Notes under the pieces: generated by a model
Seen by the model: the letters and a program-made list of their open reading frames with translations, nothing else
Told to the model about the DNA's origin: nothing
Databases searched by the model: none
Source: Pseudomonadota bacterium
GTDB lineage: Bacteria > Pseudomonadota > Gammaproteobacteria > Pseudomonadales > Halieaceae
DNA length: 32,563 nt
Direction of reading: 5' to 3'
NCBI GenBank assembly: GCA_015222725.1
Contig: JADFVW010000167.1
Coordinates: 1-32,563, forward strand
Program-made: the position numbers and the translations under genes
Part shown: positions 1,629 through 12,741 of the stretch, piece after piece
Layout of the letters: every line of letters begins with the position of its first letter
How positions within the stretch are numbered: position 1 is the first letter of the stretch

Positions 1629-1790
1629 GGAATGACACTGACTTAAGCTTCGCTTCGGGCCGCGCTGGTGTTACCGACTGGACACGCCGTGAATCCATCC
1701 ATGGAGGCTCGGCAACAGCATCCCTGCTGTTGACGGTCCTGCCGGTAACACCAGCGCGCCCCTTCCCTACGCTTAAGCCAGTGCCATTCC
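1629..1790 (-). repeat. Structured palindromic repeat, copy 1 (gyrA leader side)
   Basis: There is a perfect 16-bp inverted repeat at 1661-1676 and 1743-1758. It extends outward as a weaker pairing (1629-1648 with 1771-1790) in which only two positions differ; read on the minus strand, those two are G:U pairs. The region between the arms contains a 7-bp hairpin (1713-1719 with 1726-1732, loop AGGGAT on the minus strand), then a motif containing CCATGGATGG and ATTCACG. The same core occurs at 11941-12048 with different arms. The minus strand is taken as sense because the wobble pairs and the core orientation agree. Function is unknown; it lies 31 nt upstream of gyrA. Confidence 0.85.
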
Positions 1791-1804
1791 TACTTTAACG
1801 AAAA

Positions 1805-1833
1805 ATTTTAGCTTTGAACTCGCCGCTTGTCCG
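1805..1833 (-). promoter_or_regulatory. Candidate sigma-70 promoter for gyrA
   Basis: On the minus strand a -10 box TAAAAT (1805-1810, five of six consensus bases) lies 17 bp from CGGACA (1828-1833, matching the GACA half of the -35 consensus). Transcription would begin near 1798, just before the palindromic repeat, which would place the whole repeat inside the gyrA leader RNA. This is a by-eye match only. Confidence 0.3.
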
Positions 1834-1999
1834 GCTGTTATGCACCTCAACAAGCACCTTTCAATTCGCCCAAACACAAACCGCGGATTATACGGAAAAT
1901 GCGGCTTTCCCGCCATGTTTTTACAGTATTACGGGGAATTGAGGTTATACTTCGGCGCGAATGTGACAAACACCCACCTGGCACAGGATACGGCGCGCC

Positions 2000-3325
2000 A
2001 TGAGCTCAATTCCAGAATTTGTGGACACCCTGATTCACCCGGGTTGGATCGTCCCTGTTGTGCCCGAGGGCGACGTCCTGACCGGGTTCAGTGTCGCCCT
2101 GGTGGGCAATAAAATAGTCGCCGTTCTCCCCACCGAAGAAACCACCTATATCAACGCAAAGAAAGTCCATACCCTGCCTGAACACGTTCTGCTACCCGGG
2201 CTGATTAACGCCCACGGCCATGCCGCCATGTCCCTGTTACGCGGTTACGCGGACGACCTGCCACTCATGCCCTGGCTGGAGCAACATATCTGGCCAGCCG
2301 AGGCCAAACATGTGAGTGAGGAGTTTGTGCGCGATGGCGTGGAGCTCGCCATTGTTGAAATGCTGCGCTCCGGCACCACAAGCTTCACCGATATGTATAT
2401 ATACCCGGATATTACCGCCGAAGTTTCTCAGGCAATGGGCATGCGTTGCCAGATTACTTTTCCCGTCTTTGATTTCCCCACTGCCTGGGCACGGGATGCG
2501 GACGAATACATCAGCAAGGGACTGGCCCTGAGAGATAGGCTGAAGCACAGTGAGCTAATTTCTGTGGCATTCGGGCCCCATGCACCTTACACAGTGTCCC
2601 AGAACAATCTGTCCAAGGTGGCCACCCTGGCTGCACAACTGGACATAGGCGTGCACATCCATCTGCATGAGACCACTGGAGAAGTGCTGCAGGCTGTCGA
2701 GCAACACGGCGAGCGGCCCATCGACACCCTGCACCGGCTGGGTTTGCTGGGGCCGAAAACGCAGTGCGTACATATGACCGACCTTGGGAATCAAGATATA
2801 GCTCTGCTGGCCGCTACCGGCGCCCACGTGATCCACTGTCCCACCTCCAACATGAAACTGGCCTCTGGCAGCTGTCCCGTGGCAAAACTGTTGGCGCAGG
2901 ACGTCAATGTCGCCCTGGGCACGGACGGTGCCGCCGCCAACAACAATCTAAACATGTTCGGAGAGATTCGCGCAGCCGCCCTGCTAGGCAAATTGCACAC
3001 CCAGGATGCCAGCGCGATTTCTGCCCAGCAGGCACTATCAATGTCGACCATAAACGGTGCGCGAGCCCAGGGCATCGACGATTGCCTGGGCAGCCTGGAG
3101 GTCGGCAAGCTGGCCGACCTGATCGCTGTAGACATGAGCGGCCCGGAGACCGCGCCCCTGTATAACCCAATTTCACAACTGGTCTACGCGAGCAACGGCA
3201 GCCAGGTCACTCACAGTTGGATAAACGGGAAATTGCTCCTTGAAAACCGGGCGCTCAACAATATCGACATGCCCCAGCTCATGCAAAAAATACAAAAATG
3301 GCAACACCGCATTGGAAGCCAATAA
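2000..3325 (+). CDS. mtaD: TRZ/ATZ family amidohydrolase, 5'-methylthioadenosine/S-adenosylhomocysteine deaminase type
   Basis: This is a metal-dependent deaminase of the amidohydrolase superfamily (441 aa). Characterised relatives deaminate the adenine ring of methylthioadenosine and related nucleosides for salvage; the Pseudomonas homologue sits beside gyrA, as here. Visible metal and substrate residues are the NAHGH pair (His72, His74), the HIHLHET cluster (His219-His223), HCPTSN (His279) and GTDGAA (Asp309). The flanking N- and C-terminal segments form the usual small beta-sandwich. ATG at 2000 is chosen because the characteristic N-terminus starts there. mupP follows 4 nt later, so the two are probably co-transcribed. 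The exact substrate cannot be read from sequence; 8-oxoguanine or other purine deamination remains possible. Confidence 0.87.
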   Translation: MSSIPEFVDTLIHPGWIVPVVPEGDVLTGFSVALVGNKIVAVLPTEETTYINAKKVHTLPEHVLLPGLINAHGHAAMSLLRGYADDLPLMPWLEQHIWPAEAKHVSEEFVRDGVELAIVEMLRSGTTSFTDMYIYPDITAEVSQAMGMRCQITFPVFDFPTAWARDADEYISKGLALRDRLKHSELISVAFGPHAPYTVSQNNLSKVATLAAQLDIGVHIHLHETTGEVLQAVEQHGERPIDTLHRLGLLGPKTQCVHMTDLGNQDIALLAATGAHVIHCPTSNMKLASGSCPVAKLLAQDVNVALGTDGAAANNNLNMFGEIRAAALLGKLHTQDASAISAQQALSMSTINGARAQGIDDCLGSLEVGKLADLIAVDMSGPETAPLYNPISQLVYASNGSQVTHSWINGKLLLENRALNNIDMPQLMQKIQKWQHRIGSQ

Positions 3326-3329
3326 AACA

Positions 3330-4010
3330 ATGACCAAACTTCCCTCCGAGCTGAAAGCGGTTGTGTTTGACCTGGATGGCACCCTGGTCGATACGGCAGA
3401 TGAATTCATCATTGTGGTGCAGGCCCTGCGCGCCGAGCACGGACTGACCGCTATGGATGAAAACCTTATTCGCTCCACGGTATCCAGCGGGGCCCGGGCC
3501 CTGGTTCATCTCGCCCTGAGCATGCGCGAGACAGACCCCATGTTTGAGAGCAAACGCCTGCGCCTGCTGGAACTCTATAGTGAGGTGCTGGGCAGTGTAG
3601 CCAGACCCTACCCGGGCATAGAGTCCCTGATTACCAGACTGGAACAACGCGGCATCGCCTGGGGTATATCCACCAATAAGCCCAGGGCGTACACGGCGCC
3701 CCTGATGCAAAGCCTGAACCTCTCTCCGGCGCCCTCCTGCGTGGTGTGCCCGGACGATGTAAAAGAAACCAAACCTCACCCCGAGCCCCTCTACCTCAGT
3801 TGCCGCCAGATAGGCTGCACGCCCCACCAGGCTATTTATATTGGCGACCACAGGCGCGATATTGAAGCGGGCAGAAGGGCAGGCATGTACACCATTGCCG
3901 CCGCCTATGGCTATATAGAAGCCGGCGACGACCCCTCGGACTGGGGGGCCAATGCCCGGGTAGACTGCAGCACAGAACTCTCGACCATGATTTTAGGGGA
4001 CACCGGTTAG
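3330..4010 (+). CDS. mupP: N-acetylmuramic acid 6-phosphate phosphatase (HAD family)
   Basis: This is a HAD-superfamily hydrolase of 226 aa. Its position between mtaD and yciK matches MupP, which removes phosphate from MurNAc-6-P in the AnmK-MupP-AmgK-MurU peptidoglycan recycling route; this route bypasses de novo UDP-MurNAc synthesis. Motif I is VFDLDGTLVDT (nucleophile Asp14, acid/base Asp16), motif II is STNKP, the motif III Lys is in KPHPEP, and motif IV is IGDHRRDIEAG. The open frame extends upstream to 3240 inside mtaD, but the HAD N-terminus places the start at ATG 3330, 4 nt after the mtaD stop. In Pseudomonas ubiG lies between mtaD and mupP; here it is absent. Phosphoglycolate phosphatase is the alternative reading of the fold. 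Confidence 0.85.
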   Translation: MTKLPSELKAVVFDLDGTLVDTADEFIIVVQALRAEHGLTAMDENLIRSTVSSGARALVHLALSMRETDPMFESKRLRLLELYSEVLGSVARPYPGIESLITRLEQRGIAWGISTNKPRAYTAPLMQSLNLSPAPSCVVCPDDVKETKPHPEPLYLSCRQIGCTPHQAIYIGDHRRDIEAGRRAGMYTIAAAYGYIEAGDDPSDWGANARVDCSTELSTMILGDTG

Positions 4011-4014
4011 GCCT

Positions 4015-4773
4015 ATGCAAAATATTCCTTCTGATTATGTGGCACCAACGGACCTGCTTGCGGGCAAAATTATTCTGGTTACCGGCGCGGGAGACGGCAT
4101 AGGCCGCGCCGCGGCCCTGGCCTACGCGAAGCACGGAGCAACCCTGGTCCTGCTGGGACGGACGGTGGAAAAACTGGAAGCCGTCTACGATGAAATAGAG
4201 GCAGCGGGCTACCCGCAAGCCGCCATCTTCCCGCTGGACCTGAAAACAATTACCGAGCAGGAGTGCGAGAGCCTGCGTGATGCTCTGGAAAGAGAATTTG
4301 GTGCACTCGACGGCCTACTGCACAACGCCGGCATACTGGGAGAAAGGCGGCCCATTGAGAGTGCCACCTATCCCAGCTGGACCGAAGTCATGCAGGTTAA
4401 TGTCAACGCACAGTTTCTGCTCACCCAGAGCTTGCTACCCCTGTTACAGGCGGCGCCCACGGCGTCTATCATTTTCACATCTTCGGGTGTGGGCAGAACA
4501 GGCCGCGCATTCTGGGGGGCCTACGCCGTATCAAAATTCGCCACGGAGGGGTTAATGCAGGTACTGGCAGACGAGCTGGAGAATATTTCCAAAGTGCGTG
4601 TGAACAGCCTGAACCCGGGAGCAACCAATACCGCCATGCGCCGCACCGCCTATCCGGGAGAAAAGCCCAGCACCAACCCCTCCCCCAAAGACATCATGCC
4701 TGCCTATTTATATCTAATGGGCAAGGACAGCATTGGTATAACAGGCAAAGCCTATAATGCCCAACCGCTCTAA
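4015..4773 (+). CDS. yciK: YciK family short-chain oxidoreductase
   Basis: This is a 252-aa short-chain dehydrogenase/reductase whose physiological substrate is unknown in the family. The Rossmann motif TGAGDGIG spans residues 23-30, the HNAG motif follows near 103-106, and the catalytic set is Ser157, Tyr170 and Lys174 (GAYAVSKFA). Length and sequence match YciK throughout. It starts 4 nt after the mupP stop, so mtaD-mupP-yciK look like one operon. Its stop codon overlaps the stop of the convergent rluB by a few bases, leaving no room for a terminator between them. Confidence 0.93.
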   Translation: MQNIPSDYVAPTDLLAGKIILVTGAGDGIGRAAALAYAKHGATLVLLGRTVEKLEAVYDEIEAAGYPQAAIFPLDLKTITEQECESLRDALEREFGALDGLLHNAGILGERRPIESATYPSWTEVMQVNVNAQFLLTQSLLPLLQAAPTASIIFTSSGVGRTGRAFWGAYAVSKFATEGLMQVLADELENISKVRVNSLNPGATNTAMRRTAYPGEKPSTNPSPKDIMPAYLYLMGKDSIGITGKAYNAQPL

Positions 4774-5645
4774 CGCTTGCTCTTCTTTCCTGTCGCCCTG
4801 CCGCGACGCTTGCCAAACTGCCGCTCCATCACCTGGCGCTCCTGCAAGGTATTGCGTTTAACATCCTTCACCTGTAGCCCCGCCATACGATAGAGGCCTT
4901 TAATCTCCTTTCGGTCCAGCTCAATCCATTGGCCCTGCTTGACCTTGGATGGAATGAATACATCGCCGTAGCGCACGCGCTTGAGCCGAGACACGGTCAA
5001 GCCCTGAGACTCCCACAGGCGGCGCACCTCACGGTTTCGACCCTCCATCAGCACCACGTAAAACCAGCGATTGATACCATCACCGCTGCCCAGCTGAATA
5101 TCGGAAAATTTGGCAACGCCATCCTCCAGCATGACGCCTTCCGTCATCCGCTGCAGCATACCGTCGTCCACTTCGCCCATCACCCTGACCATATACTCTC
5201 GTTCGATATTGGAAGAGGGGTGCATAAGCGAATTTGCCAGCTCACCGTCGGTACTGAAGAGCAACAAGCCCGAGGTGTTGTAATCCAGTCGACCTATGGA
5301 TATCCAGCGACCACTTTTCAATTTGGGCAATCGCTCGAATACTGTGCTCCGGCCCTGGGGGTCTTTGCGGGTACAAACCTCCCCGGTGGGTTTGTGGTAA
5401 AGAATGCAGCGGGTATCTTCGCCAGAGGGGGTTGCCAGTGGCTTTCCATCCACAGTGATTTTGGCCCGCCCGTCCACCCGGTCACCCAGGCTGGCGACCT
5501 TGTTATCAACCACAATACGTTTGGCCTGTATCCAGCGCTCCATTTCCCGGCGAGAGCCGAGGCCCGCCCTGGCCAAAACTTTCTGTAGTTTCTCACCGGG
5601 CAGGGCACGCGGTTCGGTGTGGGTATTTTCGGGTTTATCAGTCAT
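4770..5645 (-). CDS. rluB: 23S rRNA pseudouridine(2605) synthase
   Basis: RluB isomerises U2605 of 23S rRNA (E. coli numbering) to pseudouridine during 50S assembly. The protein has 291 aa, the same length as the E. coli enzyme. An N-terminal S4 RNA-binding domain (about 18-65) precedes the RsuA/RluB catalytic domain. The catalytic Asp is Asp121 in GRLDYNTSGLLLF, and EGRNREVRRL is the family signature. The basic tail (about 270-291, rich in Arg/Lys) is usual. It is the last gene of the rnm-yciO-scpA-scpB-rluB set, 11 nt after scpB. Confidence 0.96.
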   Translation of the reverse strand: MTDKPENTHTEPRALPGEKLQKVLARAGLGSRREMERWIQAKRIVVDNKVASLGDRVDGRAKITVDGKPLATPSGEDTRCILYHKPTGEVCTRKDPQGRSTVFERLPKLKSGRWISIGRLDYNTSGLLLFSTDGELANSLMHPSSNIEREYMVRVMGEVDDGMLQRMTEGVMLEDGVAKFSDIQLGSGDGINRWFYVVLMEGRNREVRRLWESQGLTVSRLKRVRYGDVFIPSKVKQGQWIELDRKEIKGLYRMAGLQVKDVKRNTLQERQVMERQFGKRRGRATGKKSKR

Positions 5646-5656
5646 AGGCGTTGAGG

Positions 5657-6340
5657 CTAAATACCCGTCTCTGTATTTTGCTGCGGCTGCTCGGTCTTCT
5701 CCTCATCGGCGGCCACGTGCTCTGTGCCACCGACCACGGTGAGGGCATCCGATTCGGGTTCGGGTTCGGGTTCGGGTTTCAGATCCGTAAAGCCCAGCTC
5801 TGCCGTCAAGGTTTCAAAGTCGCGAACCTCGGCGAGGGCGGGCAATTGATCCAGCGTCTTGAGGTTAAAGTAATCCAGAAACATTTTTGTTGTGGCATAC
5901 ATAGCCGGCCTGCCCGGCACATCGCGGTGCCCCACCACTCGCACCCACTCGCGCTCGTGAAGGGTCTTGATGATATTGGAGCTCACCGCCACGCCGCGAA
6001 TCTCTTCAATTTCACCGCGGGTGATAGGCTGCCTGTAGGCGATCAGGGCGAGGGTCTCCAACATGGCACGGGAATATTTCTGGGGCCTCTCCTGCCACAG
6101 CCGCGCTACCCAGGGGCTGAGCGTCTGGCGCACCTGAAAGCGAAAACCACCGGCAACTTCCAACAGCTCGAAACCACGGTCATCGCAGCGCAGTGCGACT
6201 TCCTTGAGTGCCTCGCGAATCTCAGTACTTTCAGGCTTCTCCTGCTCGTCGAACAATTCGCCGATTTGCGTCACCGTCAGGGGGTTGCCCGCCGCCATGA
6301 GAGCACCCTCAACAATTTGCACCAATCCGGTTTCCGCCAT
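5657..6340 (-). CDS. scpB: Segregation and condensation protein B
   Basis: ScpB is the dimeric winged-helix (kite) subunit that binds ScpA and SMC for chromosome compaction and segregation. The 227-aa protein has two winged-helix domains; ETLALIAYRQPITRGEIEEIRGV is represented in part by LETLALIAYRQPITR, and SSNIIKTLHEREWV follows. The C-terminus carries a Glu-Pro repeat (EPEPEPES) encoded by a 6-bp tandem tract at 5753-5776. ATG 6340 lies one base after the scpA stop (TAGCATG), implying translational coupling. Confidence 0.95.
   Translation of the reverse strand: MAETGLVQIVEGALMAAGNPLTVTQIGELFDEQEKPESTEIREALKEVALRCDDRGFELLEVAGGFRFQVRQTLSPWVARLWQERPQKYSRAMLETLALIAYRQPITRGEIEEIRGVAVSSNIIKTLHEREWVRVVGHRDVPGRPAMYATTKMFLDYFNLKTLDQLPALAEVRDFETLTAELGFTDLKPEPEPEPESDALTVVGGTEHVAADEEKTEQPQQNTETGI
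5753..5776. repeat. Four-copy 6-bp tandem tract (TTCGGG) inside scpB
   Basis: Four exact copies of TTCGGG occur within scpB; on the minus strand they encode the alternating Glu-Pro run in the C-terminal tail. Because the unit is 6 bp, slippage would change tail length without a frameshift. Confidence 0.85.
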
Positions 6341-6341
6341 G

Positions 6342-7226
6342 CTATTCCGACCTGCCCTTGATATGAATGGGACCGAAATTTTCGGTCTGTACGATTTCCA
6401 CCAGCGACTCCTTCAGTAGCTCCATAATCGCGAGAAAGGTCACCACCACACCGAGCCGCCCTTCGGAGGCGGAAAACAGCGACACAAAAGGCACAAACTG
6501 TTCACCGGCCAGTAACTCCAGCACCTGTGACATACGCTCCCGGGTGGACAGAGCCTCCCGTTGTACATGGTGGCTCTCGAACATATCCGCCCGGCGCAAC
6601 ACTTCGCTCAGGGACATTAACAACTGGCGCATATCCACTTCCGGTTCCGGCCTGGCCCTGTTCAGATCGGGTGGGTTGCCGTTACCAACCCAGGTGTCGC
6701 GCCCAATTCTGGGCATTTCGTCCAGTTCGGCTGCGGCCTGCTTAAAGCGCTCGTACTCCTGCAAGCGACGGATAAGCTGAGCCCTGGGGTCTTCCTCATC
6801 TTCCTCTACCTCGGACGAACGCGGCAGCAGCATGCGCGACTTGATCTCTGCCAACACCGCGGCCATCAGCAAATATTCGCCGGCCAGTTCGAACTGCATG
6901 GCATCCATCAGATCGACGTAATGCATATATTGTTCGGTGACCTGGGATACATCGACGTCCAGAATATCGAGGTTCTGTCGGCGAATGAGGTACAGCAGCA
7001 GATCCAGCGGGCCCTCGAAGGCCTCCAGGAAAACCTCCAGTGCCTGGGGCGGAATATACAAATCCTTGGGAAGCTCGGTAACCGCCTTCCCCATCACTAC
7101 CGCGAAGGGCATTTCACCTTGCTGTGGCGAGCTGACCTGAGCCGACAGAGGCGCTTCCTGGGGTGCAACGCCCTCTGCGCCCGCCTGCTGAGTCTCTGGA
7201 TTTAGTTCTGGCTCGGATTCGTTCAC
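6342..7226 (-). CDS. scpA: Segregation and condensation protein A (kleisin)
   Basis: ScpA is the kleisin that bridges the SMC heads and binds ScpB. The protein has 294 aa with a long, low-complexity Glu/Gln/Pro-rich N-terminus (about 1-60). The core begins at FEGPLDLLLYLIRRQNLDI (about 69-87), and the conserved GEYLLMAAVLAEIKSRMLLP segment follows at about 117-136. The C-terminal winged helix includes FLAIMELLKE. ATG 7226 is the most upstream start; an internal start would remove only the variable tail. The gene lies 44 nt after yciO and is directly coupled to scpB. Confidence 0.94.
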   Translation of the reverse strand: MNESEPELNPETQQAGAEGVAPQEAPLSAQVSSPQQGEMPFAVVMGKAVTELPKDLYIPPQALEVFLEAFEGPLDLLLYLIRRQNLDILDVDVSQVTEQYMHYVDLMDAMQFELAGEYLLMAAVLAEIKSRMLLPRSSEVEEDEEDPRAQLIRRLQEYERFKQAAAELDEMPRIGRDTWVGNGNPPDLNRARPEPEVDMRQLLMSLSEVLRRADMFESHHVQREALSTRERMSQVLELLAGEQFVPFVSLFSASEGRLGVVVTFLAIMELLKESLVEIVQTENFGPIHIKGRSE

Positions 7227-7270
7227 TGAGATGGCCGATGGCGTTTAAGTATGACCCCCAGTATACCTGA

Positions 7271-7894
7271 CTAATTTTCAAATGGCGCGGTATCGCCCTT
7301 GCCGGCACGTAAAACCATGGGGACCTCGTCGGCGAGATCCACCACGGTGGTCGCCTCCATACCGCAATACCCACCGTCGATGACCAGATCGACGTCGTGT
7401 TCCAGAACCTGGCGAATATCGTAGGGGTCTATCAGGGGATATTCCTCCCCCGGCATAATCAAGGTGACACTCATCAGGGGCTCACCCAGGTCCGCAAGCA
7501 GTGCCAGAGCGATAGGGTTTTCCGGTACGCGCAGCCCCACCGTTTTGCGCTTGGGGTGCATCAAGCGCTTGGGCACCTCGGAAGTTGCCCGCAAAATGAA
7601 GGTATAAGGGCCCGGCGTGCTGTGCTTGAGCAGACGATAGGCCGCGTTATCAACTTTTGCATAGCTGGCAATTTCGGATAAGTCCCGGCAAACCAGGGTA
7701 AAATTATGGCGTGCATCCAGCTTCCGAATTCGCCGGATTCTATCCAGGGCACTTTTGTCGCCAATATGACAGCCCAGCGCATAAGCGGAGTCGGTGGGGT
7801 AGACCACCACACCGCCCGCTCGAATAATGTCCACCGCCTCTCGAACCAACCTGGCCTGAGGGTTCTCCGGATGAATTTGAAAAAACTGACTCAC
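7271..7894 (-). CDS. yciO: YciO/YrdC/Sua5 family protein
   Basis: The protein has a YrdC-like fold. YciO resembles the threonylcarbamoyl-AMP synthase TsaC/Sua5 but is a separate subfamily with an uncertain role in tRNA t6A metabolism. The N-terminus SQFFQIHPENPQ and the motifs VVYPTDSAYALGC, STPGPYTFILRAT and KRKTVGLRVP follow E. coli YciO along its length. The open frame extends upstream to 7939, but homology places the start at GTG 7894 (207 aa). That leaves a 29-nt gap after rnm instead of an overlap. It is probably co-transcribed with rnm and scpAB. Confidence 0.9.
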   Translation of the reverse strand: MSQFFQIHPENPQARLVREAVDIIRAGGVVVYPTDSAYALGCHIGDKSALDRIRRIRKLDARHNFTLVCRDLSEIASYAKVDNAAYRLLKHSTPGPYTFILRATSEVPKRLMHPKRKTVGLRVPENPIALALLADLGEPLMSVTLIMPGEEYPLIDPYDIRQVLEHDVDLVIDGGYCGMEATTVVDLADEVPMVLRAGKGDTAPFEN

Positions 7895-7923
7895 GATAGT
7901 TCGCTCTCTTACTGCCGGGCAAT

Positions 7924-8754
7924 TTACCAGCGCTCCCACACACCGCGCAGGTCTCCGAGGTGGCGTAATTCTACACCGAGTTGCGCGCCATAGGGGGCAT
8001 CTCTATGAAAATCGCTGCCCGCCGAAACTTCCAATTCAAATTCCAGGGCCAGGCGCTTCAGCTGATTGGTTTGGTCCGCCGTTTGACGGCCGTTCAGGAT
8101 CTCCACAGCCTGCCCTCCGGCCAGCTTGAAATCGACGATCAGGCGACGCAGTTTCATCCGCGTAAACTTGTACTTCAAGGGATGGGCGACAATGGCCACG
8201 CCCCCCGACTCGACAATCCAGCCAGTAACCTCACTTAACTCCGGCCAGAACGCTTTTACATCGCCTATTTTTCCCTGCCCCAGATACTTGTCAAATGCCT
8301 GGTTAAAGTCTTCTACATGGCCCTGGTCAATAAGCCACCGGGCAAAATGCGGCCGCCCCAGCTGGCTCTCTCCCGCGATTGCCAGAGCCCCACTGTGCGC
8401 GCCGGCAAAGCCCTTCGCCTCCAGGCGCTCGGCAATTTTCTTTCCCCGCGCTATCCGGGCATCCCCTAAAAGGGCCAATCCAGCGGCCATGGCGGGGTGC
8501 TGGTCATCCACTGCCAGGCCCACGATATGAATTGTGGTACCAGACCAGCGACAGGAAAATTCCACCCCGGAAATTAGTCTCATCTGCCCGGGAATGTGCG
8601 TATAATACTCCGCCGCAGCCCGATAGCCTGCCATGGTATCGTGGTCGGTAATGGCAAACTGGTGAATATTTCCCGCCACAGCCCGGTCAATTAACTCGCC
8701 GGGGCTGAGGGCACCATCGGATGCGGTGGTGTGGCTGTGAAAGTCGATTAGCAC
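7924..8754 (-). CDS. rnm: PHP-domain phosphoesterase, RNase AM type (YciV)
   Basis: This PHP-domain metallo-phosphoesterase is homologous to E. coli YciV/RNase AM, a 5'-3' exonuclease that trims rRNA 5' ends and also hydrolyses 3',5'-nucleoside bisphosphates. The metal-ligand motifs visible are DFHSHTTASDG at the N-terminus, ITDHDT, GVEFS, VAHPLKY and GSDFH. I place the start at GTG 8754 (276 aa): AAAGG lies about 7 nt upstream and the PHP motif begins three codons later. The ATG at 8850 would add 32 residues without homology. It is first in the minus-strand operon and divergent from yciB. Confidence 0.88.
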   Translation of the reverse strand: MLIDFHSHTTASDGALSPGELIDRAVAGNIHQFAITDHDTMAGYRAAAEYYTHIPGQMRLISGVEFSCRWSGTTIHIVGLAVDDQHPAMAAGLALLGDARIARGKKIAERLEAKGFAGAHSGALAIAGESQLGRPHFARWLIDQGHVEDFNQAFDKYLGQGKIGDVKAFWPELSEVTGWIVESGGVAIVAHPLKYKFTRMKLRRLIVDFKLAGGQAVEILNGRQTADQTNQLKRLALEFELEVSAGSDFHRDAPYGAQLGVELRHLGDLRGVWERW

Positions 8755-8858
8755 AATTGTACCTTTAGTTGGGCCACCTATAGTATCAGCTGATGCCCGA
8801 GAAAACCTATCAGACGCTAAACCCGTGACGCAGAACAACCTATGAGACAAGCAGTTTT

Positions 8859-9467
8859 ATGAAGCAACTGGCTGAATTTTTACCTATCGCCCTGTTTTTC
8901 ATCGTCTACCAGTTCAAGGGTGAGACCATCGAACTGGGCAGCTGGACACACACCCTGGACGGGATTTTCTCCGCAACTGCTGTTCTCATGGCTGCAACCG
9001 GTGCACAGGTTGCAGTGAGTTTCGCCATAAGCCGCCGCCTGGAAAAACGTCAACTGTGGTTATTACTGGCGGTGCTGGTATTTGGCGGTGCCACCCTGTT
9101 TTTCCGCAATCAAATGTTTATTCAATGGAAGCCCACCATATTCAACTGGGTGCTGGCCCTCGCCTTCGGCGCCTCCCAGTTTATCGGCGACAAAAACCTG
9201 ATGCAGCGCACCCTGGGCAGCCAGTTGCAATTACCCGGCGTCGTCTGGACAAAACTCAACCTGATCTGGACAACAAATTTTGCCGTGGTCGGGGCGCTAA
9301 ACTTATACGTCGCCTATTATTACAGCGAGGAGACATGGGTCAGCTACAAGCTCTATTCAGCCATTGGCTTTACCATTGTATTGACCCTACTTACCGCTCT
9401 CTTGATCAGTCCTCACCTGCGCGAAGATGAGGACGAACAGAGCGACGAGCAACTTCCCCAGAAATAA
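8859..9467 (+). CDS. yciB: Inner-membrane septation protein YciB
   Basis: This is an integral membrane protein of the YciB/IspZ family (202 aa), implicated in cell-envelope synthesis and septation. About five hydrophobic segments are visible, beginning with [13 protein letters not shown]. The conserved stretch [18 protein letters not shown] and the later [10 protein letters not shown] segment are diagnostic. The C-terminal tail is acidic ([13 protein letters not shown]) and longer than in E. coli. yciI follows after 10 nt, so the two genes are probably an operon. Confidence 0.94.
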
Positions 9468-9477
9468 GGACCAACCC

Positions 9478-9777
9478 ATGTACTACGCCATCATTTGCGA
9501 GGACATAGAAAACAGCCTGTCACTGCGGCAACAAGCCAGGCCAGCCCATTTATCCCGCATCCAGGAACTGGTAGACCAGGGGCGACTGCTTGCTGCCGGC
9601 CCCCACCCCGCCCTGGATACCGGAGAGCCTGGAGAGGCGGGCTTCACTGGAAGCCTGATTATCGCTGAGTTCGACAGCCTGGAGGCGGCCACCGTATGGG
9701 CCGACTCTGACCCCTACGTAGATGCGGGTGTATTCAACCGGGTGACGGTTAAACCCTATAAGGTCGTACTGCCTTAA
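9478..9777 (+). CDS. yciI: YciI family protein
   Basis: This is a 99-aa dimeric alpha/beta-barrel protein of the YciI family; the cellular role is not established. It aligns with E. coli YciI end to end: [39 protein letters not shown] and [12 protein letters not shown]. The start is ATG 9478, supported by AAGGA 6 nt upstream; the frame upstream (to 9427) overlaps yciB and has no homology. Confidence 0.95.
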
Positions 9778-9857
9778 ACTTGTTTCAAGCTGCGCCTATG
9801 AATACACTGCACCGCTGACCCAAAGACTAGAACCATAAGCCGACAAAGGACCTTATT

Positions 9858-10532
9858 TTGCGATTTATCATAACACTCTCTACGCTTTTGCTACTCGCTG
9901 CCACCCCTGCCATTGCCCAGGACACTCGCTATGTCAGTGACAAACAATATATTCCCCTGCGCAGCGGGCCCGGGTCTGATTACCGCATTACACACAGGGG
10001 CATCCCCTCGGGTACACGCCTGAGCGTTGCCCGCACCTCAGGTGATGGAACATTCGCTGAAATTACCACTGCCAAGGGCACCACCGGCTGGATTCGCACA
10101 CAGTACCTGATGAAAGACCTTCCCGCGCAGAACAAACTGGATGCCGCCGTCAAAAAGGCCGCCGATCTGGAAGCAACAAATGTATCCCTGGCCAGCGAAG
10201 CCAAAGCGCTGAAAATCGAGCGCGTCGACGTACTCAAGCAAATCCAGAGCACCGATGGGCAACTCGATGAAGTGAGCCTGGAATTGACAGAATTAAAGCA
10301 GATCTCGGGCAATGCCGTGCAGTTGGATACGGATAATCGCCGATTAATCGTGGAGTCAGAGACGCTTAAGTCAGAACTGGACATGCACCGCGCAGAAAAT
10401 CAGCGGCTTAAGGATCGACTGAATAGCGAGGGCTTTATGAACGGTGCACTGGCGGTGCTACTTGGGGTTATCATTGCCCTGGTGGTTCCCCGGTTGTGGC
10501 CCAAGCGCCGCAGAGACTCTGGCTGGGCATAG
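9858..10532 (+). CDS. SH3-domain and membrane-anchor protein (TIGR04211/YgiM-like)
   Basis: The protein has 224 aa. A signal peptide (1-20, cleavage after AIAQ) is followed by a bacterial SH3 domain (about 22-88, with PLRSGPGSDYRI and GTTGWIRTQYL), a long coiled coil (about 95-190) and a C-terminal membrane helix (about 195-213) ending in a basic cytoplasmic tail (PKRRR). This architecture matches the YgiM/TIGR04211 family, whose function is unknown; an envelope or peptidoglycan-binding role is inferred from the SH3 domain. The start codon is TTG at 9858, with AAAGGA 8 nt upstream. Confidence 0.88.
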   Translation: MRFIITLSTLLLLAATPAIAQDTRYVSDKQYIPLRSGPGSDYRITHRGIPSGTRLSVARTSGDGTFAEITTAKGTTGWIRTQYLMKDLPAQNKLDAAVKKAADLEATNVSLASEAKALKIERVDVLKQIQSTDGQLDEVSLELTELKQISGNAVQLDTDNRRLIVESETLKSELDMHRAENQRLKDRLNSEGFMNGALAVLLGVIIALVVPRLWPKRRRDSGWA

Positions 10533-10562
10533 TGCTCGAATACACCAATACAGGAAACCATC

Positions 10563-11135
10563 ATGTACAAAATATTATTGCTCTGCCTTTTTATTATGCT
10601 CCCCTGCCTGGCGCAGGCCGGGGACAACAAAGCACCCAACCCCCAGGTCATCATCAAAACCAACTACGGCGATATCACCGTACGCCTTTTTCCTGCCAAG
10701 GCTCCACTTACGGTTGAAAACTTTCTCAAGTATGTCGATGCGGGCCAGTACAACGGCACCATTTTCCACCGCGTGATCCCAAAGTTTATGATTCAGGGCG
10801 GTGGCTTTTTGCCCGACATGAGCAAGAAAGAAACCGGGAAACCCATCGTCAACGAATCCAAAAACAAGCTGCACAACACCCGCGGCACGATCGCCATGGC
10901 GAGAACCAACCACCCCGACTCCGCCACCGCCCAGTTTTTTATCAACCAGAGCACCAACCTGCGGCTGGATTGGACACCCGGAAATCCCGGCTACACCGTA
11001 TTTGGTGAAGTTACCAGCGGACTGGATGTTGTGGACTTTATCGCTTCATCACCGGTACAAAAGGCAGGGGGCATGGACAACGTGCCTATCGAGACCATCG
11101 TCATAAGCGAGATCAAGCGCAAGAGCCTGCTGTGA
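10563..11135 (+). CDS. Periplasmic cyclophilin-type peptidyl-prolyl isomerase
   Basis: This cyclophilin (190 aa) catalyses cis-trans isomerisation of prolyl bonds. A hydrophobic signal peptide (1-18, ending CLAQA) indicates export, as for PpiA. The active-site signatures are FHRVIPKFMIQGG (Phe and Arg of the catalytic pocket), MARTNHPDSATAQFFIN, and the VFGEV segment. An AGGA ribosome site precedes the ATG. The next gene, pdxJ, overlaps it by 4 bp (GTGA), so the two are coupled in translation although their functions are unrelated. Confidence 0.93.
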   Translation: MYKILLLCLFIMLPCLAQAGDNKAPNPQVIIKTNYGDITVRLFPAKAPLTVENFLKYVDAGQYNGTIFHRVIPKFMIQGGGFLPDMSKKETGKPIVNESKNKLHNTRGTIAMARTNHPDSATAQFFINQSTNLRLDWTPGNPGYTVFGEVTSGLDVVDFIASSPVQKAGGMDNVPIETIVISEIKRKSLL

Positions 11136-11914
11136 TCGCACTCAGCGTCAATCTCAACAAAATTGCGCTGATCCGAAACTCCCGGGACACGACTAATCCC
11201 AGTATCCCGCACCACGCCCGGATGTGCCTGGACGCGGGGGCCGATGGCATCACTGTCCACCCCCGCCCCGACCAACGCCATATCAGGGTAGACGACTGCT
11301 TTGAGCTGGCCGCCATGCTACGCGGCGACCTATCATCGCCGCGTATCGAGTTCAATATCGAGGGCAACCCCATGACCGGTCCGCGCAAAAGCGAGCGCGC
11401 CGGGGTGAGTGACTACCCGGGCTTCATGGCGCTGGTAAAAGCCATCTGCCCGGCACAGTGCACACTGGTGCCCGATGGCGACGGCCAACTCACCTCAGAT
11501 CACGGCTTTGACCTAATGCGAGATGGCGAGCGGGTTGCCCCCCTGGTGCAGGAGCTGAAAGCCCTGGGAATTCGAACCAGCCTGTTTATGGACCCCGACC
11601 TGGAGCAAATTCGACTGGCCGCACAGACCGGTGCCGATCGCATCGAGCTGTATACAGAATCTTATGCAGAAGCCTGGCGCCGGCAGGAAAATGTGGACGG
11701 CGTACTTCATCAGTTTATCGAAGCCGCCGAAGTCGCCGCCGAAGAGGGCCTGGGCCTGAATGCGGGACACGACCTGGACTTGAACAACCTGCCACGTTTC
11801 GTTGATGTACCGGGATTGCTGGAAGTTTCTATCGGTCATGCTTTGACGGTGGATGCTATTCGGATGGGACTAGCGAGTACAGTGAAGGCGTATAAAGCTG
11901 TGCTGGGGACGTAG
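11132..11914 (+). CDS. pdxJ: Pyridoxine 5'-phosphate synthase, Bacteroidetes-like subtype
   Basis: PdxJ condenses 1-deoxyxylulose 5-phosphate with 3-amino-2-oxopropyl phosphate to give pyridoxine 5'-phosphate. The protein is 260 aa, a single TIM barrel. Diagnostic segments are SVNLNKIALIRNSR, DAGADGITVHPRPDQRHI, EFNIEG, CTLVPD, SLFMDPD, ELYTESYA and LNAGHDLDL (the NAGH His). The HPRPDQRHIR / EFNIEG wording resembles the Bacteroidetes type more than the enterobacterial enzyme (HLREDRRHI). The start is GTG 11132, overlapping the cyclophilin stop. In many gammaproteobacteria pdxJ lies in the rnc-era-recO cluster; here it does not, so this may be a second or replaced copy. Confidence 0.9.
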   Translation: MIALSVNLNKIALIRNSRDTTNPSIPHHARMCLDAGADGITVHPRPDQRHIRVDDCFELAAMLRGDLSSPRIEFNIEGNPMTGPRKSERAGVSDYPGFMALVKAICPAQCTLVPDGDGQLTSDHGFDLMRDGERVAPLVQELKALGIRTSLFMDPDLEQIRLAAQTGADRIELYTESYAEAWRRQENVDGVLHQFIEAAEVAAEEGLGLNAGHDLDLNNLPRFVDVPGLLEVSIGHALTVDAIRMGLASTVKAYKAVLGT

Positions 11915-11940
11915 TTTTAATTCCAATAGTTGAAGCATAG

Positions 11941-12048
11941 CCCTGATAGTCTATGGGGTGTTTAAAACCGTCTGCGGCAGGGACGCCGCAGCCGAGACTC
12001 CATGGATGGATTCACGTCGTGTTTTAAACACCCCATAGACTATCAGGG
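11941..12048 (+). repeat. Structured palindromic repeat, copy 2 (pdxJ/methyltransferase junction)
   Basis: There is a perfect 28-bp inverted repeat (11941-11968 with 12021-12048) enclosing a 52-bp core. The core holds a 7-bp hairpin (11972-11978 with 11985-11991, loop AGGGAC) followed by a motif containing CCATGGATGG, ATTCACG and CGTGT. It shares this core with copy 1 (1629-1790, opposite strand) while the arms are unrelated. Lying between the ends of two convergent genes it could work as a two-way terminator, but there is no clear T-run. Confidence 0.88.
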
Positions 12049-12069
12049 CGCCACCACTACTTGATAAAA

Positions 12070-12741
12070 CTACGAACCTGCCAGATATATCCTCACATCC
12101 CGAAACTCCGGCGACTCATCGAGGTCCGGTAAGGTACTGGCCTTATGGCGATCTATCTGAACGTAGGGCGGATAATCGAAATCTTTCACGCGAGAATCTG
12201 CAATCAAGACCTGATCGGCCCTATCCACAAAGCGCTGTAACCACACCAGATTTTCCCGGTCATACAGAACATCGGCGACGATAATCAGGTCTATGGCACC
12301 TTCGACTTCAAAATAATCGCTTACCAGTGTTAATTTCACACCGTTGAGCTCTGCATTTCGTTTTGTCGCAGCCAGAGCGAGGGGGTCATTGTCGCAGGCG
12401 ATGACTTCGCTGGCTCCGCCCAGGGCGGCGGCGATGGCGACTACGCCGGAGCCGCAGCCGAAATCCAGCACCCGTTTACCCTTCACCCAGGATGGGTCAT
12501 CCTGTAGAAACTGTGCCAGTACTTGGCCGGAGGCCCAACAAAATACCCAATACAGGGGGTTATCCATAAGGCGGGTAACCACCTCCGGCGAGAGTGTGCT
12601 CTGGGGGTAATCTTCATTTAGCAGGAACAGGCCAAGTTCGGGATAGTCCGGCAGGGACATGTGCTCTATGCGTGCCTCGGGCAACAAATCCTGAATTATT
12701 GCTGATAATTTCTTCTCGACCACGGTTGGGCAGGTCTCCAC
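12070..12741 (-). CDS. Class I SAM-dependent methyltransferase, METTL20/Nnt1-like
   Basis: The protein has 223 aa with a Rossmann-type methyltransferase fold. Motif I is [15 protein letters not shown] (about 90-104), the acidic end of beta 2 is VIACDND, and the post-II motif is [25 protein letters not shown] segment precedes motif I, as in the COG3897 family, which includes the bacterial ETF-beta lysine methyltransferases related to METTL20. The substrate is therefore probably a protein lysine (possibly ETF-beta), but this is inference; ribosomal-protein methylation is the main alternative. It is transcribed alone and is divergent from rluA. Confidence 0.75.

What the first reader, a model, noticed from the sequence alone, without database searches (positions are those of the whole stretch)
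1629..12048. Two intergenic elements share a core but have unrelated, perfectly palindromic arms
Copy 1 (1629-1790, minus sense) and copy 2 (11941-12048, plus sense) share a core that ends in CCGAG-M-CTCCATGGATGGATTCACG-type sequence (28 bases, two differences). Yet the flanking inverted arms (16 bp perfect plus extension; 28 bp perfect) do not match each other except for a GGTGTT near the core. Either a mobile core inserts into the loops of existing palindromes, or the arms are kept complementary by selection while free to drift. Both outcomes are unusual. I have an impression of similar CATGGATG-containing repeats in other gammaproteobacteria but cannot name a family.
Basis: seen in the sequence. 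Interest (0 to 1): 0.8.

Follow-up and report, generated by a model that had tools for sequence, protein, structure and literature searches.

The report
Scattered RNA hairpins with private arms
Two odd intergenic palindromes are copies of a known but unexplained folded-RNA motif (TwoAYGGAY) that is scattered tens to more than a hundred times through many gammaproteobacterial genomes; in the genome studied, copies that share almost the same core keep long outer stems that are paired but spelled differently in each.

Summary
Both copies (1655-1764 minus, 11940-12049 plus) have a 52-nt core inside a stem of about 29 bp, P1. The closest family is Rfam RF01731, TwoAYGGAY (window copies 36.5 and 40.6 bits, cut-off 43; two sister copies pass). 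A covariance model built here finds 46 copies in this genome, 14 to at least 150 in 19 selected genomes, and hits in 76 of 370 sampled gammaproteobacteria. P1 is kept paired as a single sense strand: 95.6% standard pairs over the whole structure in 38 arm clusters, and G.U exceeds A.C, about 50 to 10, with all mismatches scored alike and kin reduced. Plain drift does not suffice: in this genome, copies with cores at least 93% identical, inner stem included, have arms about as alike as shuffled ones; in G034 arm class shows no significant link to P2 and a borderline one to P3. In Arenimonas and Xanthomonas arms are largely shared. Best reading: a dispersed RNA repeat with a shape-constrained stem and cores exchanged or homogenised between copies. 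CsrA binding is a published proposal, untested; 75 of 76 element-bearing genomes have CsrA.

The parts
11940..12049 (+). copy 2, whole element in model register (P1 + core), in the gap after pdxJ and before a convergent methyltransferase-like gene
   Evidence: (113.8 bits), genes
11940..11968 (+). copy 2, 5' arm of P1 (29 bp, perfect)
11969..11994 (+). copy 2, P2 hairpin; ANGGAY loop at 11979-11984
   Evidence: structure mapped on the sequence
11996..12018 (+). copy 2, P3 hairpin; AUGGAU loop at 12002-12007, 3' bulge UUCAC at 12011-12015
   Evidence: structure mapped on the sequence
12021..12049 (+). copy 2, 3' arm of P1
1655..1764 (-). copy 1, whole element in model register, between divergent gyrA (ATG at 1597, minus) and an amidohydrolase gene (2000-3325, plus); same sense as gyrA
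   Evidence: (105.2 bits)
1736..1764 (-). copy 1, 5' arm of P1
1710..1735 (-). copy 1, P2 hairpin; loop at 1720-1725
   Evidence: structure mapped on the sequence
1686..1708 (-). copy 1, P3 hairpin; AUGGAU loop at 1697-1702, bulge 1689-1693
   Evidence: structure mapped on the sequence
1655..1683 (-). copy 1, 3' arm of P1
1771..1790 (-). copy 1, 5' strand of an outer helix beyond P1 (20 nt; by eye 18 Watson-Crick pairs and 2 G.U)
   Evidence: (arms of 55 nt), read by eye
1629..1648 (-). copy 1, 3' strand of the outer helix
   Evidence: read by eye

Best explanation
Each copy is a dispersed intergenic RNA element of the TwoAYGGAY kind. Its sense strand folds into a long outer stem P1 (about 26-29 bp) that closes a three-way junction with two hairpins, P2 and P3, both ending in an ANGGAY-type hexaloop. 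P1 must stay paired and of fixed length, but its letters hardly matter (shown by covariation and by G.U far above A.C). Cores are alike within a genome across copies with unrelated arms, most simply through recombination or gene conversion between copies inside the conserved core; arms that share no homology are left out of this and stay private, while recently spread copies still share arms (the lack of linkage is shown in two genomes, the process is inferred). Most likely role: a binding platform for the RNA-binding protein CsrA/RsmA on the two GGA loops, so that many transcribed copies act as a diffuse sink or as local tags on transcripts (inferred; CsrA binding by this family is proposed in PMC4333381, untested).
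For: RF01731 hits. 46 copies in G000 and 14 to at least 150 in 19 genomes picked because they or a relative carry the motif; 76 of 370 sampled genomes. On 38 arm-cluster representatives 95.6% of 1672 cells are standard pairs against 57.5% shuffled, and 648 cells are changed on both sides against 191; RNAalifold gives the same 44 pairs. P1 mismatches G.U: A.C are about 50: 9.5 with all mismatches scored alike and one element per arm cluster, 54: 13 in the fixed-register set, 229: 17 over 147 sites without removing kin, 49: 2 in 52 of the better-scoring G034 copies. Core length 52 in 134 of 168. 13 of 91 pairs of G000 copies have core identity at least 0.93 and arm identity near 0.5, shuffled mean 0.49. 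G034, 49 copies: P1 class against P2 p 0.31 and 0.28; P2 upper against lower part 0 of 5000 permutations; P2 against P3 p 0.01. In Stenotrophomonas a P2 variant is in 5 of 12 S. panacihumi copies read and in 0 of 16 HITSZ_GD copies read, and differs at 2 of 3 orthologous loci. CsrA in 75 of 76 element-bearing genomes against 248 of 294 others (lists matched by eye; Fisher p 1.8e-4, kinship not corrected).
Against: Both window copies fall just below the RF01731 cut-off, and none of 19 loci from other genomes reached it. Orientation to neighbouring genes is near random (left gene + 59, - 61; right + 71, - 49), which does not fit a plain UTR regulator and leaves open how each copy would be transcribed. 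No promoter or terminator pattern near copy 2. G.U excess would also arise if a single DNA strand were folded. P1 class against P3 in G034 is borderline (p 0.054), and one P3 type is missing from one of three classes. A few G000 pairs keep some arm likeness (L003/L005 0.73 on both arms, L003/L009 0.73 on one). Mismatches other than G.U and A.C are about as many as G.U (55 against 54 of 1102). One element-bearing genome (G231) gave no CsrA hit. No expression or binding data here.
Confidence: 0.62

Rival explanations
1. Ordinary MITE- or REP-like repeat: whole elements, arms included, are copied to new sites, and the arms merely diverge with age by compensatory changes. (Not exclusive of the best explanation.)
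For: In Arenimonas and Xanthomonas most copies read share arms; in G034 most copies read fall in three arm classes with 16 nt of partly shared flank outside P1. The stretches of G001 and G002 syntenic with the window hold no element.
Against: In G000 arms are about as different as shuffled sequence although cores and the P2 stem, which also varies between genomes, are at least 93% identical; arm class and P2 type are not detectably linked in G034.
Confidence: 0.3
2. A mobile core inserts into the loops of existing palindromes.
For: Cores and arms are not detectably linked; arm classes carry their own outer flanks.
Against: P1 length and core length are fixed and P1 shows the same pairing constraint as the core helices, so P1 belongs to the unit. 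Apart from the two elements, the window's listed inverted repeats within 120 bases have arms of at most 18 nt, or 48 nt at 71%. The site of copy 2 in G001 and G002 shows no palindrome by eye (about 72% identity, so weak).
Confidence: 0.12
3. A folded single DNA strand, not RNA, is what is recognised, as for integron attC sites or HUH transposon ends (recalled); arms vary because shape is read.
For: Strand-specific G.T tolerance is expected for ssDNA too; orientation to genes is near random; copies are dispersed.
Against: The most conserved letters sit in GGA hexaloops of the shape that PMC4333381 matches to CsrA sites (in one search the loops were required by the finder). No match in plasmids, phages or viral contigs at the sensitivity used. 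No recombinase or transposase was searched for.
Confidence: 0.1
4. Private arms arise at insertion: one flank is copied inverted on the other side of the core (inverted target duplication).
For: Would give perfect private arms at once, as in G000.
Against: In Stenotrophomonas, Arenimonas and G034 conserved sequence lies outside the arms, so the arms are inside the repeated unit; the mismatch spectrum shows that pairing is maintained afterwards.
Confidence: 0.05

Closest known systems
TwoAYGGAY RNA motif, Rfam RF01731 (Weinberg et al. 2010, PMC2864571; passages seen)
   Same: Two ANGGAY-type hexaloop hairpins in one junction and a poorly conserved external stem; the table row seen gives: probably an RNA, probably not cis-regulatory, from human gut, gammaproteobacteria and Clostridiales.
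   Different: P3 here has 3 bp above a 3' UUCAC bulge instead of the longer Rfam stem; most copies tested score below the cut-off; high copy number, fixed P1 length and the lack of linkage between arms and core are in none of the passages I saw.
Ysr224, Rfam RF02770 (Yersinia sRNA)
   Same: It looks like the reverse strand of this family: at one Sodalis locus it scores 82.9 bits (cut-off 70) on the strand opposite to the element. PMC9029176 (passages seen) lists it among the 20 most prevalent sRNAs and as temperature-responsive.
   Different: Modelled on the opposite strand; the window copies reach only 26.3 and 31.2 bits.
CsrB/RsmZ-type CsrA-sequestering sRNAs (recalled, and PMC4333381 passage)
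   Same: GGA in hairpin loops, several sites per RNA.
   Different: Those are single genes with many loops; here two loops per copy and many copies. Binding untested.
REP/BIME, ERIC and YPAL repeats (recalled; YPAL named in PMC2267715 passages)
   Same: Dispersed intergenic palindromes, in some cases in inverted pairs.
   Different: Those families share their stems between copies (recalled). Whether YPAL is the Yersinia form of this element was not tested.
Integron attC sites (recalled)
   Same: Stem letters vary while shape is kept.
   Different: attC is conserved at its ends, here the centre is conserved; integrase context was not examined.

Membership tests
TwoAYGGAY RF01731 | score at or above the curated cut-off of 43 bits | tested here: inconclusive
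   window copies 40.6 and 36.5; of 12 G000 loci searched L011 51.4 and L002 48.8 pass and L005 38.7 does not, 9 gave no RF01731 match at E <= 1; 1 of 4 G000 matches over the cut-off; 0 of 19 loci, mostly of other genomes,
TwoAYGGAY RF01731 | two AYGGAY-type hexaloop hairpins in one junction | tested here: met
   with sites found by the P3 motif alone the P2 loop holds GGA in 136 of 167, and 11 of the 15 misses printed hold one by eye
TwoAYGGAY RF01731 | external stem of low sequence conservation | tested here: met
Ysr224 RF02770 | score at or above 70 bits | tested here: not met
   window copies 26.3 and 31.2; one Sodalis relative 82.9
MITE | terminal inverted repeats shared by the copies | tested here: not met
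   arms unrelated in 14 G000 copies apart from a few likenesses; largely shared in Arenimonas and Xanthomonas
MITE | target-site duplication and a related transposase | not tested
   no empty site close enough; no transposase search made
REP/BIME | GTAG-type palindrome linked to a RAYT transposase (recalled) | not tested
   -
intrinsic terminator | GC stem of short loop followed by a T run | tested here: not met
   none in 11700-12300 (copy 1 not scanned)
CsrA-binding RNA | binds CsrA through GGA loops | not testable with these tools
   loop sequence fits; CsrA in 75 of 76 element-bearing genomes

The most novel reading that the evidence does not exclude
A modular RNA repeat: within a genome the 52-nt two-loop core is passed between many elements with unrelated 29-bp stems, so that up to more than a hundred structurally alike, sequence-private RNA hairpins serve one CsrA-type protein across the chromosome: a distributed sink built by core exchange rather than by one sRNA gene.
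Probability: 0.28. Interest if true: 0.78.

Novelty: new variant of a known kind. Interest (0 to 1): 0.6.

Why it matters
TwoAYGGAY has been an RNA motif of unknown role since 2010. Seeing it as a dispersed element (at least 150 matches in some genomes) with a stem held by pairing alone, and with cores not linked to arms, changes the question from what one sRNA does to why a genome keeps dozens of them, and offers many natural variants for testing CsrA binding. It also suggests that Ysr224 is the opposite strand of the same element, and warns that such palindromes break short-read assemblies.

Tried and rejected
Rejected: chance; intrinsic terminator for copy 2. No hit in viral contigs, plasmids, E. 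coli genomes or phages at the sensitivities used. No convincing gene in the 350-bp repeat beside the element in seven Arenimonas loci (open frames only, judged by eye). A first gene-calling attempt put 46 of 126 sites inside open frames; with a codon model 2 of 126 are, 120 could be classed and 4 lacked a gene on one side, so the first was discarded. A first arm comparison used a wrong pattern and compared one pair; one search replaced it and covers 14 of the 18 G000 copies (the others do not fit its pattern, or are cut by a contig end); its pattern for the second subfamily matched nothing, so that subfamily is not in the count. The search for close empty sites did not succeed: Xanthomonas flanks are themselves repetitive, and all 18 stretches fetched around one site carry at least one model match, three of them weak and one (L333) not in the gap between the flank matches; the genus of G431 holds only 3 genomes. 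In G034, 52 of 55 model matches in 46 loci were used, of 125 in the genome; 3 with insertions were left out and the loci were taken from the best-scoring and the exact-motif copies, which can favour good pairing. The finder requires A.GGAY in both loops and scores G.U milder than other mismatches, so cannot show that the loops are invariant; two searches were made without these biases. The RF01731 search of whole genomes is insensitive: one search missed L002, which passes the cut-off. Literature searches: exact motif, TwoAYGGAY (14), RF01731 (15), Ysr224 (16), CsrA with intergenic repeats (60), YPAL and intergenic repeats (80), dispersed RNA motif (81): none of the listings and passages I saw describes TwoAYGGAY as a dispersed repeat with private stems; supplements could not be read. 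On checking, confidence in the best explanation was lowered from 0.66 to 0.62, because one search gave no RF01731 hit in 19 loci and one P3 type is missing from one arm class.
Full report
What is there. Copy 2 has 29 perfect pairs. Copy 1 has a less perfect inner stem and a second, outer helix of about 20 bp whose two mismatches, read by eye, are G.U in the sense strand. Copy 2 lies between the ends of pdxJ and a methyltransferase-like gene, copy 1 between the starts of gyrA and an amidohydrolase gene, in the sense of gyrA.

It is a family. In the same genome (G000, a draft of 425 contigs, 83% complete) the 19-letter motif occurs 14 times exactly and 18 times with up to two mismatches, with 0 for the reversed control. 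By eye 16 of these 18 have long pairing arms of their own; one is cut by a contig end (L008) and one pairs poorly (L015, 68.1 bits). A second subfamily with another P2 has 13 copies, also with their own arms by eye; the model built here matches all 13.

Name. Rfam reports TwoAYGGAY, RF01731: in 12 G000 loci two copies have 51.4 and 48.8 bits, above the cut-off of 43, and one 38.7; the window copies reach 40.6 and 36.5 when searched alone. None of 19 loci, mostly of other genomes, reached the cut-off. The Rfam alignment puts both AYGGAY hairpins and the outer stem where they are drawn here. On the opposite strand the same copies resemble Ysr224 (26.3 and 31.2 bits, cut-off 70), and one Sodalis copy reaches 82.9, so Ysr224 looks like the antisense of this family.

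Structure. One element per arm cluster gave 38 sequences of equal length that align without gaps. A 44-pair structure (P1 29, P2 9, P3 3+3 with a 5-nt 3' bulge) has 95.6% standard pairs against 57.5% in shuffles and 38-46% in slid versions; 648 cells are changed on both sides against 191. RNAalifold, not told the structure, returns the same 44 pairs. Core length is 52 in 134 of 168 elements found.

Selection on pairing. If arms were DNA palindromes decaying freely, G.T and A.C mismatches should be about equal. With all mismatches scored alike and one random element per arm cluster (38 clusters from 156 sites with arms, of 186) they are about 50 and 9.5. In the fixed-register set, whose finder favours G.U, they are 54 and 13, with 980 Watson-Crick and 55 other of 1102; over 147 of 176 sites, kin not removed, 229 and 17 with 123 other; in 52 of the better-scoring G034 copies 49 and 2. 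So the sense strand is folded as a single strand. This fits RNA and, less well, ssDNA. The low share of G.U (about 5%) means nearly strict Watson-Crick pairing, which I cannot fully explain.

Arms and core are not linked. In G000, 13 of the 91 pairs among 14 copies have cores at least 93% identical, P2 stem included, yet their arms are about 50% identical on average, near shuffled arms (mean 0.49, 97.5% point 0.64). Some pairs are above that: L001/L013 0.68 on the left arm, L003/L009 0.73 on the right, and L003/L005 (core 0.87) 0.73 on both. P2 is a stem too, so equal drift should have changed it as well. In G034 the 52 copies read fall into P1 classes of 32, 10, 7 and three singles (single linkage, so the largest class lumps at least two arm types by eye). 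The commonest P2 types recur in all three large classes; P3 type TCC/GGA is in two of the three. For 49 copies, mutual information of P1 class with P2 is not significant (p 0.31 and 0.28) and with P3 borderline (0.054), while P2 upper and lower parts are tightly linked (0 of 5000 permutations) and P2 with P3 less so (0.01). Linkage that fades with distance is what recombination gives. In the two Stenotrophomonas genomes a P2 variant is in 5 of 12 copies read of one and 0 of 16 of the other; of three orthologous loci two differ and one agrees.

Results against a single simple story. In Arenimonas most copies read share arms, with a repeat of about 350 bp upstream of many. In Xanthomonas arms are largely shared, and all 18 stretches fetched around one site carry at least one element, three of them only weak matches. 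In Stenotrophomonas both ends of P1 and some outer sequence are conserved while the middle varies (by eye). So arms range from shared to private. The orthologues L280 and L271 differ by a block of about 6 nt changed on both arms (by eye).

Spread. Model R1 gives 46 copies in G000, 51 and 16 in its congeners, 125 in G034, 127 in a Xanthomonas, 148 and at least 150 in two Saccharospirillum genomes, and matches in 19 of 19 genomes given, which were chosen because they or a relative were known to carry the motif; at most 150 candidates are scored per genome. In an even draw of gammaproteobacteria 76 of 370 genomes, 65 of 273 genera, have a match at E <= 1e-5, against 4 of 370 with the exact 19-mer. 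Rfam's own model lists 4 in G000 at E <= 0.001 and misses a copy known to pass.

Place in genomes. Of 126 sites tested, 2 lie inside a predicted gene; 120 could be classed: left gene + 59 and - 61, right gene + 71 and - 49 relative to the element's sense. The stretches of G001 (both sites) and G002 (site of copy 2) syntenic with the window hold no model match. At copy 2's site about 20 and 10 nt lie between the two stop codons there by my reading, against 155 here. At about 72% identity this does not tell how arms arose.

Function. GGA in a hairpin loop is the known shape of CsrA sites (recalled); PMC4333381 (passage seen) proposes TwoAYGGAY as a CsrA-sequestering RNA. In the same draw of 370 genomes 323 have CsrA; of the 76 with the element 75 do, G231 being the exception; of the 294 others 248 do (lists matched by eye; Fisher p 1.8e-4, without correction for kinship or genome reduction). 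This is weak support only. Near-random orientation to genes argues against a plain UTR switch.

Papers. Passages were seen in PMC4333381, PMC2864571, PMC11701678, PMC7657543, PMC11661157, PMC9029176 and PMC2267715; others were seen in listings only. Rfam 15 (PMC11701678) lists two additional covarying pairs for this family. Statements on attC, REP, ERIC, MITE, CsrB and CsrA sites are recalled.

Verdict. A real, structured, dispersed RNA element of a known motif, with a genome-wide pattern that my searches did not find described: stems held by pairing alone and not linked to nearly identical cores. The structure is firm, the exchange of cores is likely, the CsrA role is a proposal.

Noticed in passing
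L186-L198 (G000), for example L186 around 1501: Second subfamily in the same genome with another P2 (TGAGGCC/GGCCGAGG region), 13 copies, each with its own arms by eye; in L001, L016 and L017 one lies roughly 100-150 bp from a first-subfamily copy in opposite orientation.
   Followed up: partly
L048:7247-7352 (-): Rfam Ysr224 (82.9 bits) lies on the strand opposite to a TwoAYGGAY-type element in Sodalis, so the Yersinia sRNA family looks like the antisense of this repeat.
   Followed up: partly
L241, L250, L254, L258 (Arenimonas terrae), some 200-300 nt upstream of the element: Another palindromic repeat, by eye with arms of about 19 bp in L241, and a core holding repeated GCATCCTGCC; read on the other strand this again places GGA in short hairpins.
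   Followed up: no
L026, L032 (G002), L030 and L421 (G034), L053: In a few copies the P2 hairpin is replaced or lengthened by another hairpin, which suggests that the tip of P2 can be swapped.
   Followed up: no
G431 contigs C4, C9, C11, C15, C16, C19, C24, C31, C33 (first bases): Many contigs of the Stenotrophomonas sp. HITSZ_GD assembly begin within about 60 bases of a core motif: the repeat seems to break short-read assembly, so copy numbers in drafts may be underestimates.
   Followed up: no
L324:343-922 (Xanthomonas): Four elements within 580 bp in alternating orientation.
   Followed up: no
window 1655-1764: Copy 1 ends 57 nt before the gyrA start codon in the same sense, so it may be part of the gyrA leader.
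   Followed up: no
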